The notes under the pieces were generated by a model. That model was not told the origin of the DNA. It saw only the letters and a program-made list of their open reading frames with translations, and did not search any database. Source: Magnetococcales bacterium (GTDB taxonomy: Bacteria; Pseudomonadota; Magnetococcia; Magnetococcales; JADFWU01). Taken from it: DNA of 20,518 nt. Shown here piece after piece: positions 7,521-15,370 of this stretch (positions within the stretch are counted from its first letter, which is position 1; each line of letters opens with the position of its first letter). The position numbers were made by a program, and so were the translations under genes. The DNA lies in NCBI GenBank assembly GCA_015234045.1, contig JADFWU010000053.1:1-20518 (forward strand), read 5' to 3'.

Positions 7521-7586
7521 AATATTATTCACCCTTTCGCCATCTCGGAATAGAGATAAACAACCACTGTTACTGTGGGTTCAGAG

Positions 7587-7703
7587 ATGATTGCCAAAGT
7601 GAAGTATGGCAATATTGGCCATTTAGATCGTCTCAAAATCAGTTCGGGAGTTCCGATAGATGAATATTTAATTTTACGAAAAGAAGCACCAGTTTTCGAT
7701 TGA
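7587..7703 (+). CDS. Short ORF, unknown, possibly a gene remnant
   Basis: ATG 7587 opens 38 codons (MIAKVKYGNIGHLDRL at the start, LRKEAPVFD at the end) before TGA. No ribosome-binding site of usual form precedes it. The peptide is mixed, not low-complexity, so it could be a fragment of a decayed gene. I do not recognise it. It may be a chance ORF. Confidence 0.2.
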   Translation: MIAKVKYGNIGHLDRLKISSGVPIDEYLILRKEAPVFD

Positions 7704-7972
7704 TTTCAATGAACGCACACATCAAATGATTATGAAATTTATTGAAACCATGAGTCAAAAAAACAACACTAAATACAGTTAAATTGCAATAAGTTTCTAC
7801 TGGATATTATCAAGGAAGTATTATTTAACAATATGGCCCTGGCTGGTCTTACACCCCTGACAACTGATTTATTTTATGCAATAATTAGCTGTTTAGTGTA
7901 GACACATTCTGAAGTACCCGCCTCAAATCAATCTACAAAATTCCGGCAAGAATGAATCATGGCATGCTTGTT

Positions 7973-7994
7973 GCTGACAAACCATATTGACAGC
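7973..7994. promoter_or_regulatory. Inverted repeat upstream of the cyclase gene, possible operator
   Basis: GCTGACAA (7973-7980) and TTGACAGC (7987-7994) are inverted copies with one mismatch, separated by six bases. The right arm contains a perfect -35 hexamer (TTGACA), but no acceptable -10 lies 15-19 bases downstream. The repeat is 80 bases before the chosen cyclase start, a reasonable place for autoregulation of a two-gene module. The evidence is position and symmetry only. Confidence 0.3.
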
Positions 7995-8073
7995 AAGATG
8001 CTTGATGTGTGGTGATGCGAGATTTTTCTTCTCACTCATCATAATATTGGATTTTTACTGGAAAGATTCTTTA

Positions 8074-9024
8074 ATGGCTTCTGATAAAGACGATATAAAA
8101 GATAGTAAAGATAAAGAAGAAACAGATCAAAATCAGCATGGAACAAATAAAAGCGATCCTGCGGATACTAATGAAGAACCACAAAAATCAGCTGACCCAA
8201 TTGAACAGCTGACTGCCCGAGAAAAACTAGAGTATCTAAATAACCATATTTACACTGGTTTTCTTGTATTATTTGATATTAAGGACTCTACAAGTCGCAA
8301 GCATGCCTATAAACGTCGATGGATTTTACAAACATCTGCATTTTATGAAAGTTTTGCAAAATTCATTAAAGAATTGAAGGTTAAAATACAGATACCTTGG
8401 GATGAACCTGTTGTTAAACTTGCTGGTGATGGATGTATGTTATTTATACCGCACCTTCCTAGCCGAGATGAAAAGCAAGATCTAAACATAAAAAATCATT
8501 CCCCTCGAACAATTCTGCGAGAAGTGATGACTTTCAGACAGATCATTCACGATGACACTGAATTGTCTGGTTTACGCCTCAAGATTGTTATTACCTATTT
8601 GACCAATATCCATCGAGTTAAGGTTAACGACACAAACGATGTATTAGGTAGAGGCATCGACTTCAGTTTCAGGCTTGAGCGATTTGCTGACTCCACCCAC
8701 TTAGTTGTGAATAAGTATTTTATTGATGTCTTGCGTGATAAAGGACGACCTAACGAGATCAGCTTGAGCAAGTTAGAGAAAAAGATTTTAAAACATGTCA
8801 TTCCATGCAGAAAACGCATGAAGGGTTGGGCTAGCCTTGAGGGCGAGTCTTTTTATTTGATAACAGAACCCGATGATATTGAAAACTTTCTGGATGCAAA
8901 ACCGTCACCTGAACGCGGAGATGTTCACACCGAGTTGATGGCTCATTTCATAAAGCATCATAGGAAGAAACAAACTGCTAACTCTACGGATCCGATTAAT
9001 ATTGATATTTCTGCAACGCCCTAA
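8074..9024 (+). CDS. Class III nucleotidyl cyclase homologue, candidate toxin or signal synthase
   Basis: The 316-residue protein has an acidic, low-complexity N-terminus (residues 4-41) followed by a region resembling the class III adenylyl/guanylyl cyclase catalytic domain (about 58-225). LVLFDIKDST matches the first metal site (Asp68; usual form FADI..FT). VVKLAGDGCMLF matches the second (Lys115 and Asp119; usual K..GD...F). GRGIDFSFRLERF matches the G..VN.A.R.E motif, keeping the Arg (200) but with Asp196 where the family has the catalytic Asn. No receptor, HAMP or PAS domain is present. The frame also opens at TTG 7987 and ATG 8005; those would add a short hydrophobic run (FFFSLIIIL). 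ATG 8074 was chosen because GGAAAG precedes it. The gene is AT-rich and followed after 20 bp by a Panacea-domain gene. It could be a Pycsar-like cyclase, or a toxin neutralised by its neighbour. The fold call is fairly firm; the product is unknown. Confidence 0.72.
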   Translation: MASDKDDIKDSKDKEETDQNQHGTNKSDPADTNEEPQKSADPIEQLTAREKLEYLNNHIYTGFLVLFDIKDSTSRKHAYKRRWILQTSAFYESFAKFIKELKVKIQIPWDEPVVKLAGDGCMLFIPHLPSRDEKQDLNIKNHSPRTILREVMTFRQIIHDDTELSGLRLKIVITYLTNIHRVKVNDTNDVLGRGIDFSFRLERFADSTHLVVNKYFIDVLRDKGRPNEISLSKLEKKILKHVIPCRKRMKGWASLEGESFYLITEPDDIENFLDAKPSPERGDVHTELMAHFIKHHRKKQTANSTDPINIDISATP

Positions 9025-9044
9025 CACTTTTGAGGACTTGATCC

Positions 9045-9596
9045 ATGCCAGAATCAAAACCTTCCCGGAATCCAAAAGAGAATCTGACCCTATTGATTGC
9101 CATGTTGATCGAGAAGCGTCAGGTAAACCGCACATCTCTAAACAAACAGTTGTTTTTCTGTGACTTGTTGCATTTCCAGAATTTCAAGAAATCCCTATCT
9201 CGTGCTTCATACCGCAAGCTTGACTTTGGACCTGTTCCAGATAATATCAGTGAAGTTAGAGAATTTATGATCCAATCAGATCTGATAACAGAAAACATGG
9301 TAGCGAATGGCCCTTATTATGAGTACTTATACGAGGCTAATAGTGACAAGATTGACTATAAGAAGGCGGAAAAGCTACTCGGAGAAAAAGAATCAAGATT
9401 AGTCCGTGCTGTTGCATCAGGACTTTCCGATATTTCTGCATCCGAGCTTTCCCGAATAACACATGAGCATGAACCTTGGAAAAGTGGACAATGGTTCGAG
9501 GAGCTTGAGCTAGAATCGGGAATTCAAGATAAGGATCTCATGAACTGGCTTAATGCTCGTGTCAAATATCACCCACATGAAACTCAATTGAATTGA
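9045..9596 (+). CDS. Panacea-domain (DUF4065, SocA/GepA-like) protein, candidate antitoxin
   Basis: Panacea domains occur in many two-gene toxin-antitoxin loci, where one antitoxin fold is paired with unrelated toxins. This 183-residue protein shows the family pattern: an N-terminal helix LTLLIAMLIEK, then LNKQLFFCDLLHF (32-44; usual form L.KLLYF.D), then the GP motif YRKLDFGPVPDNI (56-68). The C-terminal LSRITHEHEPWKSG (135-148) corresponds to the usual L...TH...PWK. The final helix (IQDKDLMNWL) fits the common C-terminal I.....M..YY pattern. GAGGA lies 8 bases before the ATG. The gene starts 20 bp after the cyclase homologue and shares its AT-rich composition, so they are probably co-transcribed and co-inherited. 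Its last 27 residues include the segment duplicated in kdsB. It ends 22 bp before the convergent GT2 gene. Confidence 0.8.
   Translation: MPESKPSRNPKENLTLLIAMLIEKRQVNRTSLNKQLFFCDLLHFQNFKKSLSRASYRKLDFGPVPDNISEVREFMIQSDLITENMVANGPYYEYLYEANSDKIDYKKAEKLLGEKESRLVRAVASGLSDISASELSRITHEHEPWKSGQWFEELELESGIQDKDLMNWLNARVKYHPHETQLN
9512..9576 (+). repeat. 65-bp exact inverted repeat, copy B (3' end of the Panacea gene)
   Basis: This copy is identical to the reverse complement of bases 1-65 and encodes residues E157-P177 of the Panacea protein. It is probably the native copy, because it continues naturally from the Panacea domain into its last helix and stop. The two copies face each other across about 9.4 kb, so recombination between them would invert everything from kdsB to the cyclase. 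Confidence 0.95.
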
Positions 9597-10651: not shown

Positions 10652-11686
10652 CTATACTGGCTCTAACAGATCCTTCAAGCCACTCTGGTAGATCTCCTGA
10701 GCCACAGAGCCTTGTAACGTCTCGAAACCGGTTAACATCTCCGATCCCAGATCATTCAGTTCATCCAACATGATGCGTTTGATTCGATTTTTATCGATAT
10801 TGCGTTGAATATAATCCAGAAAAAACCGGTCACGCACCTCATCTACCACCACATGTTGTGGCCCCAGAGCGATTACCGGTTTTCCAGCACCCATGCCATC
10901 GGTCAACATAGTCAAAGAGTCCTGTGTGCAAAATACCACATCAGAAGCCCCCAAATAGGGCTTAACAACCTTGGCAGGAGCGGAACCCCACCATGTTGCA
11001 TGCCCCACCAGCTCAGGTTTCAAATGATCCTGGAGAACGTTCTCCGCTTCGAGACCAGTACGCCGAGAACTGGTAACAAGCCATTGAATTTCATTTTCCA
11101 AGGCCAACTTATTCATGGTCTGGGCAAGTTGCTGCCACTCCTCAGCGCTATATTTATGGCTGCGGCTGTTGCCACCGATCAAAAGTGACCAATAACGCCC
11201 TTTCAGACCATTTTTTTGCCTAAACGCATCACCTGCCCGCTTTGCACCTTCAGCAGAAACCGGTGTTGGTAGAAAATCCAGAGACTGACAGTTGTCACAG
11301 GTAAAGTGTGATTCAATGAGCAAAATACGTGAAAAAAGCGCTGGAGAGATGGGCGGCAAACCAATAAACAGATTGGCACAACTAAAATGCCGTGCTATCA
11401 AAGCGTTGAACACCGCTGTTTTACCACCACTGGAGAGCACAAAACCCGGTGGTTCATCAGGTAGTGTATCAATAGTAAACAAGACACGGCCCGCGCCAAG
11501 CCCCATCAAACCACCTAAACGCTCAGTCATCAACCGAACCGTTGGGCGCATGAATCCTCGGTAACGTGGCTTTACGGTAATCCAGTGAACAGCCCACCCT
11601 TTGACTTCACCGATAATCTCGGCAATGGCTTTGGACTGGTTGTAATGGCCAGGATTGCCATCACTGATCAACCATACCGTTTTCAT
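10652..11686 (-). CDS. ELM1/DUF1022-like glycosyltransferase-fold protein (copy 2 in the operon)
   Basis: The protein resembles the ELM1 (mitochondrial fission, DUF1022) family, whose bacterial members are found in envelope gene clusters and look like GT-B fold transferases. Features are VWLISDGNPGHYNQSKA (the 'DG..GH..Q' start), FVLSSGGKTAVFNALIA, LLIGGNSRSHKYSAEEW at mid-protein, WLVTSSRRTG, and the C-terminal VFCTQDSLTMLTDGMGAGKPVIAL. The frame also opens at TTG 11704, but ATG 11686 forms an ATGA overlap with the stop of the FkbM gene and gives 344 residues. The substrate is unknown. Together with the ELM1 gene at 14438-15370 this makes two divergent paralogues in one operon. The sequences are clearly different, so it is not a recent duplication. 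Confidence 0.75.
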   Translation of the reverse strand: MKTVWLISDGNPGHYNQSKAIAEIIGEVKGWAVHWITVKPRYRGFMRPTVRLMTERLGGLMGLGAGRVLFTIDTLPDEPPGFVLSSGGKTAVFNALIARHFSCANLFIGLPPISPALFSRILLIESHFTCDNCQSLDFLPTPVSAEGAKRAGDAFRQKNGLKGRYWSLLIGGNSRSHKYSAEEWQQLAQTMNKLALENEIQWLVTSSRRTGLEAENVLQDHLKPELVGHATWWGSAPAKVVKPYLGASDVVFCTQDSLTMLTDGMGAGKPVIALGPQHVVVDEVRDRFFLDYIQRNIDKNRIKRIMLDELNDLGSEMLTGFETLQGSVAQEIYQSGLKDLLEPV

Positions 11687-12609
11687 GATTCGCTCAATGT
11701 CCAACCTTCAGGAACATCTGCCAGTACGGCACCTTTTTTCACCAATATCAGATCAAAATGGATATGTTTCTGATCCAATTGGCTAATATATTCGCTCAAA
11801 GCTTTGATCTTTACATAAGATGAACCGTTTTTAGCCTTCGGAGCATAGAGATCAAAGTGACTCAGAACTTCTTCATCATACCGCGAGGCTGGCCAACCGG
11901 TTTTATCCAGGAAACGTGCATCCACTTCGATAAAACCGATAGCAAAGTCAGCCTGTGCCAATGTTTCGCGCATCCCGAGCAATACATAAGGCTCGAAGCC
12001 TTCCACATCTATTTTGAATACCAAACGCTTGGCATCCAGTCCTTTCTGTTGCAGTACTGAATCCACACTGACCGTGCCCACACGCACTTTTGTGCTTTCG
12101 GTCATGGTTTCAGCAATACCGCCAATGGCTGTGGAACCACCGCTCCACACCTCATTGACAAAGAAATCAACTTCTTCACCGGGTTTTTCACCAACCAGCG
12201 CATTGACGAGATGAATTCTGTCTGGATTGGGATGCTCAGCTTGGGATTTCTTCAAATAGTTGATCAGAACAGGATTCGCTTCAAACGCCAATGCCGTGAC
12301 CTGATCATCATAAGGCACCGAGAAAATACATTCGCCATAGTTAGTGCCCACATCCAATGCCACTGAGGGCTTGATGGTTGTGACAAAATCTTTCCAGAAT
12401 CGGCGATTGATGGGATAGCGTTTTCGAATGGAGTCAAATAAGATTTTCTTAATCGCCCGTCGATCCACCGGATTGATATATATCGGGCTGATACCCTCCA
12501 CCATATGGACATGATCCGGTGTCATGGTGCCATATTTAAGCAGTATCTGAGGTGCAAGACGCAATTTGCGAAACCACCATTCCAGCTTTTTACCTAATTT
12601 GGATCCCAT
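11683..12609 (-). CDS. FkbM family SAM-dependent methyltransferase
   Basis: FkbM-family enzymes O-methylate sugars or polyketides. In surface polysaccharide clusters they usually methylate a glycan hydroxyl. The 308-residue protein has the SAM-binding motif I as VALDVGTNYGE (83-93) and a following acidic motif at ALAFEANPVLINYL, typical of FkbM ('FEP.P'). A later VFKIDVEGFEPYVLLGM matches the family's 'KIDVEG.E...L.G' signature. The N-terminal 80 residues are basic and specific to this protein. The start ATG 12609 lies 3 bp after the stop of the preceding transferase gene, and its own stop overlaps the next start by 4 bp. Membership is secure. That it methylates the LPS core glycan is inferred from context. 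Confidence 0.88.
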   Translation of the reverse strand: MGSKLGKKLEWWFRKLRLAPQILLKYGTMTPDHVHMVEGISPIYINPVDRRAIKKILFDSIRKRYPINRRFWKDFVTTIKPSVALDVGTNYGECIFSVPYDDQVTALAFEANPVLINYLKKSQAEHPNPDRIHLVNALVGEKPGEEVDFFVNEVWSGGSTAIGGIAETMTESTKVRVGTVSVDSVLQQKGLDAKRLVFKIDVEGFEPYVLLGMRETLAQADFAIGFIEVDARFLDKTGWPASRYDEEVLSHFDLYAPKAKNGSSYVKIKALSEYISQLDQKHIHFDLILVKKGAVLADVPEGWTLSES

Positions 12610-13347: not shown

Positions 13348-14459
13348 TAACGTCTCATTGAGTGATAAAGCGCATGAGTCTGATCCAACATCTCTTGCAA
13401 AGAAAAACGTGTAACGGGTTTCATTGTCGGTGCTTGGCTAAAAAATGTATCGCACCGCTGGACCAAACCATCCAGATCATCCAGCTTAACCCGCCCTTCT
13501 GGTAGCAGATCTGCCAATATCTCACCCACGCCGCCATGATCCCAACCGATGACTGGTCGGCCCAAATAGAGCGCTTCCAGAACCGTGCGTCCAAACGATT
13601 CCGGTCTACTGGAGAGCGATAGTACCAGATCAGAAACCGCATAGATCTCCCGAATATCAGAACGCGCTCCCGTAAAAGTGATAGGCAAGCCTTTTTTTGC
13701 CACTTCAGCATACAGTTCCTGAGCATAGCCCTGACGACGCTTATCCTCACCACCCACTACCAGACCATGAATATCTGGATAGCGCGTTTTCAAGCGTTCA
13801 ATCAGTTTCAAAAAAGTAGCATGCCCTTTCAAGCGCGTCAGACGGCCAGCCAAGGTGATCACTTTTGCCTGTTTTAATTTTGGATAATCCTGATACCATG
13901 CATCCAACCATGTTTTATCCGGTTGATGACCAAAGGGAAAATCTTTTTTATCCACACCACGGTGAATTAATACCAGCTTGTCAGGATCAGTACTGGGATA
14001 ATTTTCAAGAATATGCGTCCGAAGCGCTTGTGAAACCGCAATCACGCGTTCACCTGAAGTCATGATCTGACTATAACGACTCACCGAGTGCAAACCATGC
14101 ATGGTGGTCACATAACGTGGCCGGGTCACAGGGTCCATACCACGCCACGCCAGCCAGGCCAACCAAGCCGGAACCCGAGAACGCACATGAACGATATCAA
14201 CCTGATGTTCCTTCAACAACCGACGCAATGGCCAGATCCAACGCAAGGTCAACGGACTTTTTTTACCTACAGGCCACTGGATATGCTCACTACCCGCTTG
14301 AGTCAACGGCGTAACCAACTGACCACCACCGGAAATGACCAATGAACGATGACCACGCGCCACCAACGAGGCAGCCACTTCCATCACACCGCGTTCAACA
14401 CCACCGGCGTGCATCTCCGGTACGATTTGAACAACGGTCAATTTTGACTCGGATACCAT
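13347..14459 (-). CDS. Glycosyltransferase family 4 (GT-B)
   Basis: This is a retaining GT4 enzyme, probably acting in LPS core or another surface glycan on the cytoplasmic face. The frame opens at GTG 14483, but ATG 14459 gives the usual start VVQIVPEMHAGGVERGV close to the N-terminus and has GGGAG upstream; that gives 370 residues. The N-terminal Rossmann domain includes VDIVHVRSRVPAW and TTMHG. The C-terminal domain has LAGRLTRLKGH, VVGGEDKRR, ITFTGARSDIREIYAVSDLVLSLS and the E-x7-E motif PESFGRTVLEAL followed by GRPVIGWDHGGVGEIL. With the ATG start it overlaps the upstream ELM1 gene by 22 bp, so expression is coupled. The specific sugar is not known. Confidence 0.93.
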   Translation of the reverse strand: MVSESKLTVVQIVPEMHAGGVERGVMEVAASLVARGHRSLVISGGGQLVTPLTQAGSEHIQWPVGKKSPLTLRWIWPLRRLLKEHQVDIVHVRSRVPAWLAWLAWRGMDPVTRPRYVTTMHGLHSVSRYSQIMTSGERVIAVSQALRTHILENYPSTDPDKLVLIHRGVDKKDFPFGHQPDKTWLDAWYQDYPKLKQAKVITLAGRLTRLKGHATFLKLIERLKTRYPDIHGLVVGGEDKRRQGYAQELYAEVAKKGLPITFTGARSDIREIYAVSDLVLSLSSRPESFGRTVLEALYLGRPVIGWDHGGVGEILADLLPEGRVKLDDLDGLVQRCDTFFSQAPTMKPVTRFSLQEMLDQTHALYHSMRR

Positions 14460-15370
14460 CGCCGCACAATCTCCCGTGCACACCGTCGCGTTTCACATAA
14501 AGGAGCGGATAACGGCTCCAATGCCTGACCTTGTTGCCATTGAGCAAAGGTGGTGATTGATCCCTTTTCAGCCAATTGATCCAACCCATCAACCAATCGG
14601 CTCTTCTTGTTGCGCGGCATGGGCAACACACCAACACCACACCCGGATGTCAGCGATTCATACACCATGTTCACACTATCCTCACTTACCCATGACCAAG
14701 CCGACTGAGCCAGTTGTGCGGGTAACCAATCCGGCCTTGTCTGCTCAAAAGGCACAACTGTCACTCTCTTACTGCTCAGACTCGCCAAACCAGATACAAA
14801 ATCATCCGGCGTTCTTGGCGAGGTTGTCAGCGTCCAACATAGTGAGCTCTGTTTCTCGATGATAGCTTCAATGGATTTAATCAGGCTGTTTTGATCCCAG
14901 CCATGATGTTTGGAGGGACCACCGATTAGGAATAATCCCTTATCCAAATGCTGATCCGTGACGGGTTGAACCCGATTCAAACCACCTTCTGTCACGATTA
15001 TGTTATCTGCTGGTGAAGGTTGATCATGGGCCGGAATAATACAGAGATCAAACCAACGTCTGGGCAATGAGGGTTTCATAATCAACACAGTACGGCCACC
15101 CACCCAACGCCGGGTTGCCAATAGAGGAATATGTGTCCCATGACCAGCCGCAATAATCAAATCAGGTGGCATACGCCCTTCTGAAGGTACGCCACCAAAC
15201 AGCCACTGTTTCAGCGCTCTGGCTTTGCTTGGAATCGGAATATCATAACAGGTGATGGACAGATGAACGCTCAGAGCCTCAACCAACCCCAATGTCTGCG
15301 TCTCATGGCCACGTCGTCCATCCAGATAGCGCCAGATCACCACACTCTGTTTCTGGTCGAATTCAGACAT
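14438..15370 (-). CDS. ELM1 family (DUF1022, 'mitochondrial fission ELM1') protein (copy 1 in the operon)
   Basis: The bacterial ELM1 family has no settled biochemical function. Its fold and position in envelope operons suggest a glycosyltransferase-like role, and the 'mitochondrial fission' name comes from a plant homologue. This 310-residue protein has WRYLDGRRGHETQTLGL (the family 'DG..GH..Q..GL' start), DLIIAAGHGTHIPLLATRR, TVLIMKPSLPRRWFDLCIIPAHD, GLFLIGGPSKHHGWD, TLTTSPRTP and WVSEDSVNMVYESLTSGCGVGVL. These make it a typical member. The start is ATG 15370, 16 bp after msbA's stop. Being sandwiched between the lipid A flippase and a GT4 strengthens the link to LPS. Confidence 0.88.
   Translation of the reverse strand: MSEFDQKQSVVIWRYLDGRRGHETQTLGLVEALSVHLSITCYDIPIPSKARALKQWLFGGVPSEGRMPPDLIIAAGHGTHIPLLATRRWVGGRTVLIMKPSLPRRWFDLCIIPAHDQPSPADNIIVTEGGLNRVQPVTDQHLDKGLFLIGGPSKHHGWDQNSLIKSIEAIIEKQSSLCWTLTTSPRTPDDFVSGLASLSSKRVTVVPFEQTRPDWLPAQLAQSAWSWVSEDSVNMVYESLTSGCGVGVLPMPRNKKSRLVDGLDQLAEKGSITTFAQWQQGQALEPLSAPLCETRRCAREIVRRWYPSQN

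What the first reader, a model, noticed from the sequence alone, without database searches (positions are those of the whole stretch)
8074..9596. Candidate new two-gene system: class III cyclase homologue with a Panacea-domain partner
An AT-rich pair with a 20-bp gap encodes a stand-alone cyclase-like protein and a Panacea protein. Panacea domains are known as versatile antitoxins paired with many toxin types. Class III-type cyclases are the signal makers of Pycsar anti-phage systems, whose known effectors are, for example, TIR or membrane proteins. I know of no described system that combines the two. The cyclase may be a toxin that depletes or signals with nucleotides and is held in check by the Panacea protein, or the Panacea protein may be a nucleotide-responsive regulator.
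Basis: partly seen in the sequence, partly recalled or inferred. Interest (0 to 1): 0.75.

Follow-up and report, generated by a model that had tools for sequence, protein, structure and literature searches.

The report
Cyclase and Panacea toxin-antitoxin-like gene pair
Two adjacent genes in a magnetotactic-type bacterium encode a divergent nucleotide cyclase and a Panacea antitoxin-type protein; the same pair recurs in a distant relative and most likely forms a toxin-antitoxin or phage-defence module, a combination already described once in a Burkholderia prophage.

Summary
Window 8074-9024 encodes a divergent class III cyclase (AlphaFold model; Z 17.9, 2.1 A over 160 residues to adenylyl cyclase Ma1120); 9045-9596 encodes a stand-alone Panacea protein (PF13274, E 8e-16). 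Pairing is not chance: a second Magnetococcales genome has the same genes, same order, 2 bp apart, 37%/36% identical, in different surroundings.

Panacea with a putative cyclase toxin is already described (Burkholderia prophage phi52237, PMC8832971). Pycsar membership is unsupported: no TIR or membrane effector is adjacent. I favour a type II TA-like module: cyclase effector restrained by Panacea.

New here: related stand-alone cyclases (phrog_18024) lie just downstream of ImmA/IrrE metallopeptidases in 26 of 27 viral loci and most genomic ones, across four phyla; I found no description in the papers held. Both cyclase sets carry Asp instead of the class III transition-state Asn, hinting at partner exchange and perhaps altered chemistry. 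Toxicity, product and defence are untested.

The parts
8074..9024 (+). Stand-alone class III-type nucleotide cyclase (316 aa), the likely toxin/effector; catalytic domain about residues 54-266, a charged low-confidence tail at residues 1-43
   Evidence: Retained catalytic positions: D68, D119 (metals), K115, D189 (purine contact), R200, K250; D196 where Asn is canonical.
9045..9596 (+). Stand-alone Panacea (SocA/DUF4065, PF13274) protein, 183 aa, the likely antitoxin/sensor
9025..9044 (+). 20-bp intergenic gap with a GAGG Shine-Dalgarno-like sequence; consistent with a two-gene operon (2 bp in the G010 pair)
7521..8073 (.). AT-rich leader without an intact gene of its own (GC about 0.35); one promoter-like match at 7857-7885 (CTGACA-17-AATAAT), not above the chance number

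Best explanation
The pair is a type II toxin-antitoxin-like (PanAT) module, plausibly used in abortive anti-phage defence. The first gene makes a divergent class III cyclase that, when free, turns a purine nucleotide (ATP is favoured by the Lys/Asp contact pair) into a product that stops growth, or drains the substrate. The second gene makes a Panacea protein that binds the cyclase and holds it off until a cue, such as phage infection, releases it. Shown here: both domains, the conserved two-gene order, the catalytic residues, the AT-rich non-syntenic placement. Inferred: toxicity, neutralisation by binding, substrate, trigger.
For: Panacea domain E 8e-16. Same pair at 37%/36% identity in a second genome, in different surroundings. 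Class III fold, Z 17.9. Metal aspartates D68 and D119, K115/D189, R200 and K250 invariant across the window protein, its Panacea-paired homologue and 21 viral relatives. Precedent: phi52237 PanT, a putative cyclase, is toxic, is neutralised and bound by PanA, and mainly blocks transcription (PMC8832971). Related cyclases pair with ImmA/IrrE metallopeptidases, the antitoxin type of RosmerTA (PMC10440598), in 26 of 27 viral loci, so this kind of cyclase repeatedly sits beside TA-type partners. AT-rich.
Against: No experiment. Only two Panacea-paired members were found, both in Magnetococcales. Homology to the phi52237 toxin could not be tested because its record is not held. Asn to Asp at position 196 could lower cyclisation. 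No complex could be modelled. No other defence gene was recognised in the window.
Confidence: 0.62

Rival explanations
1. Non-toxic signalling pair: the cyclase is an ordinary second-messenger enzyme and the Panacea protein its regulator or target, without cell killing.
For: Catalytic residues are largely intact. The host order also carries canonical CyaB-like cyclases, so cyclic-nucleotide signalling exists there.
Against: The sporadic, AT-rich, non-syntenic distribution and the TA-type partners, here and in relatives, fit an accessory module better.
Confidence: 0.17
2. The cyclase fold has been repurposed: the invariant Asp at the transition-state Asn position means the enzyme hydrolyses NTPs or transfers nucleotidyl groups to a target instead of cyclising, and the Panacea protein restrains it.
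For: D196 is conserved in the window protein, its G010 homologue and the ImmA-type cyclases, whereas Magnetococcales CyaB-like cyclases keep Asn.
Against: Metal, phosphate and purine contacts are kept. The effect of Asn to Asp on this fold was not tested, and no target is known.
Confidence: 0.1
3. Pycsar-like defence: the cyclase makes a pyrimidine cyclic nucleotide on infection and the Panacea protein is the receptor/effector.
For: Uridylate and cytidylate cyclases are among the structural matches (8jsz; 8jsf).
Against: Known Pycsar receptors are TIR or membrane proteins (PMC11224242); none is next to the pair. The cyclase has the purine-type K115/D189 pair. Purine cyclases match as well or better. 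I know of no Panacea protein shown to bind nucleotides.
Confidence: 0.09
4. Chance neighbours.
For: Only two examples, in one order.
Against: Each of two diverged genomes has a single detected copy of each gene, and they are adjacent, in the same order, 2-20 bp apart, in different surroundings. With several thousand genes per genome this is very unlikely.
Confidence: 0.02

Closest known systems
PanAT of Burkholderia prophage phi52237 (PanT YP_293707.1 / PanA YP_863932.1; Kurata et al. 2022, PMC8832971)
   Same: Two-gene locus of a Panacea protein and a putative adenylate/guanylate-cyclase-like protein not recognised by domain databases; there toxicity, neutralisation and complex formation are shown.
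   Different: Phage-borne; sequence relation of the two cyclases not tested here; the window pair has no functional data.
ImmA/IrrE - cyclase pairs (phrog_18024 family; no published name found)
   Same: Related stand-alone class III-like cyclase with the same catalytic set and the same Asn-to-Asp change, in a tight two-gene unit with a TA-type partner.
   Different: Partner is an upstream HExxH metallopeptidase, not a downstream Panacea; cyclases only about 15-21% identical to the window protein; separate branch in the tree.
RosmerTA (RmrA ImmA-type antitoxin with diverse RmrT toxins; PMC10440598)
   Same: Logic of an interchangeable antitoxin/sensor with varied toxins; ImmA partners of the related cyclases match RmrA models.
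   Different: The window pair has no ImmA, and no tested cyclase of the family matches a PADLOC RmrT model.
Pycsar (PycC cyclase with PycTIR or PycTM; PMC11224242)
   Same: Class III cyclase fold and metal aspartates.
   Different: No Pycsar effector; purine-type Lys/Asp pair; Panacea partner.
Class III adenylyl cyclases Ma1120, Rv1900c, CyaB
   Same: Fold (Z 16.8-17.9) and most active-site residues.
   Different: Stand-alone with no sensor domain, Asp instead of the transition-state Asn, 12-20% identity.

Membership tests
PanAT (Panacea toxin-antitoxin) | Panacea domain in one partner | tested here: met
   PF13274 E 8e-16
PanAT (Panacea toxin-antitoxin) | Conserved two-gene adjacency with a putative toxin | tested here: met
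   Window and G010/L004, same order, gaps of 20 and 2 bp, 37%/36% identity
PanAT (Panacea toxin-antitoxin) | Partner toxic alone and neutralised by PanA through direct binding | not testable with these tools
PanT of phi52237 (cyclase-type PanT) | Sequence homology of the cyclase to YP_293707.1 | not tested
   phi52237 record not in the collections held; a related phage, KL3, was fetched but has no gene annotated as Panacea or cyclase
Class III nucleotide cyclase | Class III catalytic-domain fold | tested here: met
   Z 17.9, rmsd 2.1, 160 aligned; Foldseek E 4.6e-8
Class III nucleotide cyclase | Two metal-binding aspartates | tested here: met
   D68 and D119 invariant
Class III nucleotide cyclase | Transition-state Asn-x3-Arg pair | tested here: not met
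   Arg kept (R200), Asn replaced by D196 in the window and all relatives aligned. A divergent homologue; activity cannot be read from this alone
Pycsar | Cyclase next to a PycTIR or PycTM effector | tested here: not met
   Neighbours are a PMT_2 glycosyltransferase, Panacea and a GT2 glycosyltransferase
Pycsar | Pyrimidine-selecting active-site residues | tested here: inconclusive
   K115/D189 look purine-type, but PycC clades use differing residues and no residue-level superposition was available
RosmerTA / ImmA-cyclase pair | ImmA/IrrE HExxH partner | tested here: not met
   No HExxH ORF next to the window or G010 pair; the partner is Panacea

The most novel reading that the evidence does not exclude
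A family of stand-alone class III-like cyclases with an invariant Asn-to-Asp change serves as an interchangeable effector of two unrelated antitoxin/sensor types: ImmA/IrrE metallopeptidases (widespread, in prophages and plasmids) and Panacea (the window pair). This would make cyclase toxins a general class of TA/defence effector, perhaps with non-canonical nucleotide chemistry.
Probability: 0.4. Interest if true: 0.7.

Novelty: new member of a known kind. Interest (0 to 1): 0.45.

Why it matters
It gives a second, chromosomal and clearly separate case of Panacea paired with a nucleotide cyclase, and shows that the cyclase has relatives paired with a different antitoxin type. If the cyclase is the toxin, what it makes and why that stops growth becomes testable; the phi52237 study left the product unknown. 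The ImmA-cyclase pairs, found in prophages and plasmids across several phyla and apparently unnamed, are the larger lead.

Tried and rejected
Sequence-only searches with the window cyclase: no match in Pfam, PDB, plasmids, phages or the first genome-contig scan. Weak hits (CasR E 0.026, PRK07525 E 0.23) taken as chance. Viral scans with the Panacea pair or the cyclase core found nothing; the peptide patterns were narrow, so this is weak evidence of absence. The first fold, from two sequences, was poor (pLDDT 50.7); adding 21 viral relatives raised it to 75.9. A profile comparison in which the window sat on both sides was discarded as circular. A tree put the two Panacea-paired cyclases on a long branch outside the ImmA set; long branches meet there, so neither sisterhood nor the direction of partner exchange is claimed. 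Pycsar cyclases were in the Foldseek lists but not in the 50 VIA rows. The phi52237 record could not be fetched, nor could two phages I believed to be its relatives. Centring a genome search outside Pseudomonadota and laying the whole genome in Python were not possible.

Full report
What is there. Window 8074-9024 (+) encodes a 316-aa protein and 9045-9596 (+) a 183-aa protein, 20 bp apart. Both starts have a Shine-Dalgarno-like sequence. The pair lies in an AT-rich stretch (GC 0.34-0.41; flanks 0.47-0.54) between cell-envelope genes: a lipid A acyltransferase and a PMT_2 glycosyltransferase upstream, a GT2 glycosyltransferase downstream on the other strand. The genome has one detected Panacea gene and one copy of this cyclase. 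Its class contains 48 held genomes, all of one order, and the relative found with a public title is a Magnetococcales MAG, so the host is a member of Magnetococcales.

The second protein is a Panacea protein: PF13274, E 8e-16, covering the whole domain model. It has no other recognised domain.

The first protein is a divergent class III cyclase. Sequence libraries do not name it. A profile of it and its one close relative finds CyaB-like HAMP-cyclases of Magnetococcales (E 1.5e-6 and weaker), and its best PDB match is CyaB, though at E 0.08. An AlphaFold model from 23 sequences has mean pLDDT 75.9, with ten-residue blocks of 74-95 over residues 61-220. Its nearest solved structures are class III cyclases throughout: Foldseek E 4.6e-8 to CyaB, VIA Z 17.9, rmsd 2.1 A, 160 residues to Ma1120. 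Aligned with relatives, it keeps D68 and D119 (metal), K115 and D189 (the Lys/Asp purine contacts of adenylyl cyclases), R200 and K250. These role assignments rest on established knowledge of mammalian adenylyl cyclase and CyaC. The canonical transition-state Asn is D196. That change is invariant in the two Panacea-paired proteins and the 21 viral relatives, and in the 17-member set A4 (D172 there).

The pairing recurs. In genome G010 (JADFZS010000039.1, Magnetococcales bacterium nJSWbin1) a 37%-identical cyclase is followed after 2 bp by a 36%-identical Panacea gene. The surroundings differ: a TPR-methyltransferase and a thioredoxin there. G010 also has just one Panacea gene over the cut-off. 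The pair is rare: 2 of 48 Magnetococcia genomes, none in the other Pseudomonadota of a 398-genome draw, none in 337 genomes of another class (that search had no positive control).

A larger relative. Both cyclases match phrog_18024 (E 6e-4 for the window protein). That family is common in Magnetococcales and present in other Pseudomonadota, and plasmid or phage copies occur in Leptospira, Mycolicibacterium, Sphingomonas, Tistrella and Clostridioides. Just upstream, overlapping or within about 25 bp, lies an ImmA/IrrE HExxH metallopeptidase in most genomic loci and in 26 of 27 viral loci found with a pattern taken only from the cyclase (some of these loci are near-identical). Three such proteins were typed as PF06114, with RmrA- and CapP-like matches. 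The one exception among viral loci, L077, begins at the contig end. None of these loci has a Panacea gene next to the cyclase. A model of this family built without the window finds the Panacea-paired cyclases (E about 1e-5 to 7e-5) but not the CyaB-like ones present in the same set; profile comparison gives probability 95.9, E 6e-9. In the reverse direction the Panacea-type profile finds CyaB-like cyclases and not the ImmA type, and the tree is unresolved by long branches. So the two sets are related class III cyclases, but direct sisterhood and the direction of partner change are open. G010 carries both kinds (L037 and L003).

How it probably works. Panacea proteins are antitoxins for many toxin types and may also be sensors (PMC8832971, PMC10440598). 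A putative nucleotide cyclase paired with Panacea is already known from Burkholderia prophage phi52237: it is toxic in E. coli, mainly stops RNA synthesis, triggers RelA-dependent ppGpp and is bound by its PanA. By analogy I infer that the window cyclase is the toxin and the Panacea protein holds it inactive until triggered, perhaps by phage. The substrate is predicted to be a purine nucleotide. The invariant D196 leaves room for unusual chemistry. None of the functional steps is shown here.

What it is not shown to be. It is not a Pycsar member by the features tested: no TIR or membrane effector is adjacent. It is not RosmerTA: no ImmA partner. Whether its cyclase is homologous to phi52237 PanT could not be tested, because that record is not held.

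Verdict. The window pair is a new member of a known kind. The ImmA-cyclase pairs, for which I found no description in the open-access papers searched, are the more novel lead.

Noticed in passing
L036-L044, L046-L049, L055, L058, L060, L061, L064-L066, L068-L076, L078-L096, L098-L101: Stand-alone class III-like cyclases (phrog_18024) sit immediately downstream of ImmA/IrrE-type HExxH metallopeptidases in prophages, plasmids and chromosomes of Pseudomonadota, Spirochaetota, Actinomycetota and a Clostridioides phage; no published name found.
   Followed up: partly
L036:1393-2862, L064:2686-4272 (phage phiCD27 orf37), L087:2959-4404: Some ImmA-paired cyclases appear to have a C-terminal NUDIX domain (PF00293 E 1e-7 in L036; the other two judged by eye), suggesting linked nucleotide synthesis and hydrolysis.
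   Followed up: no
tallies: phrog_18024 cyclases are much commoner in Magnetococcia (15 genomes hit, of at most 48) than in the other Pseudomonadota of the same draw (7 of about 350).
   Followed up: no
window 7587-7703: Short open stretch upstream of the cyclase (MIAKVKYGNIGHLDRLKISSGVPIDEYLILRKEAPVFD) that may be the remnant of a lost gene.
   Followed up: no
window 10652-11704 (-) and 14438-15370 (-): Two ELM1-like proteins (PF06258 matched for the first, the second judged by eye) in one envelope-biosynthesis cluster.
   Followed up: no
L022, L023, L034: Other Magnetococcales Panacea genes are followed, with a 4-bp overlap, by a conserved protein of about 140 aa of unknown family: probably another PanAT pair.
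   Followed up: no
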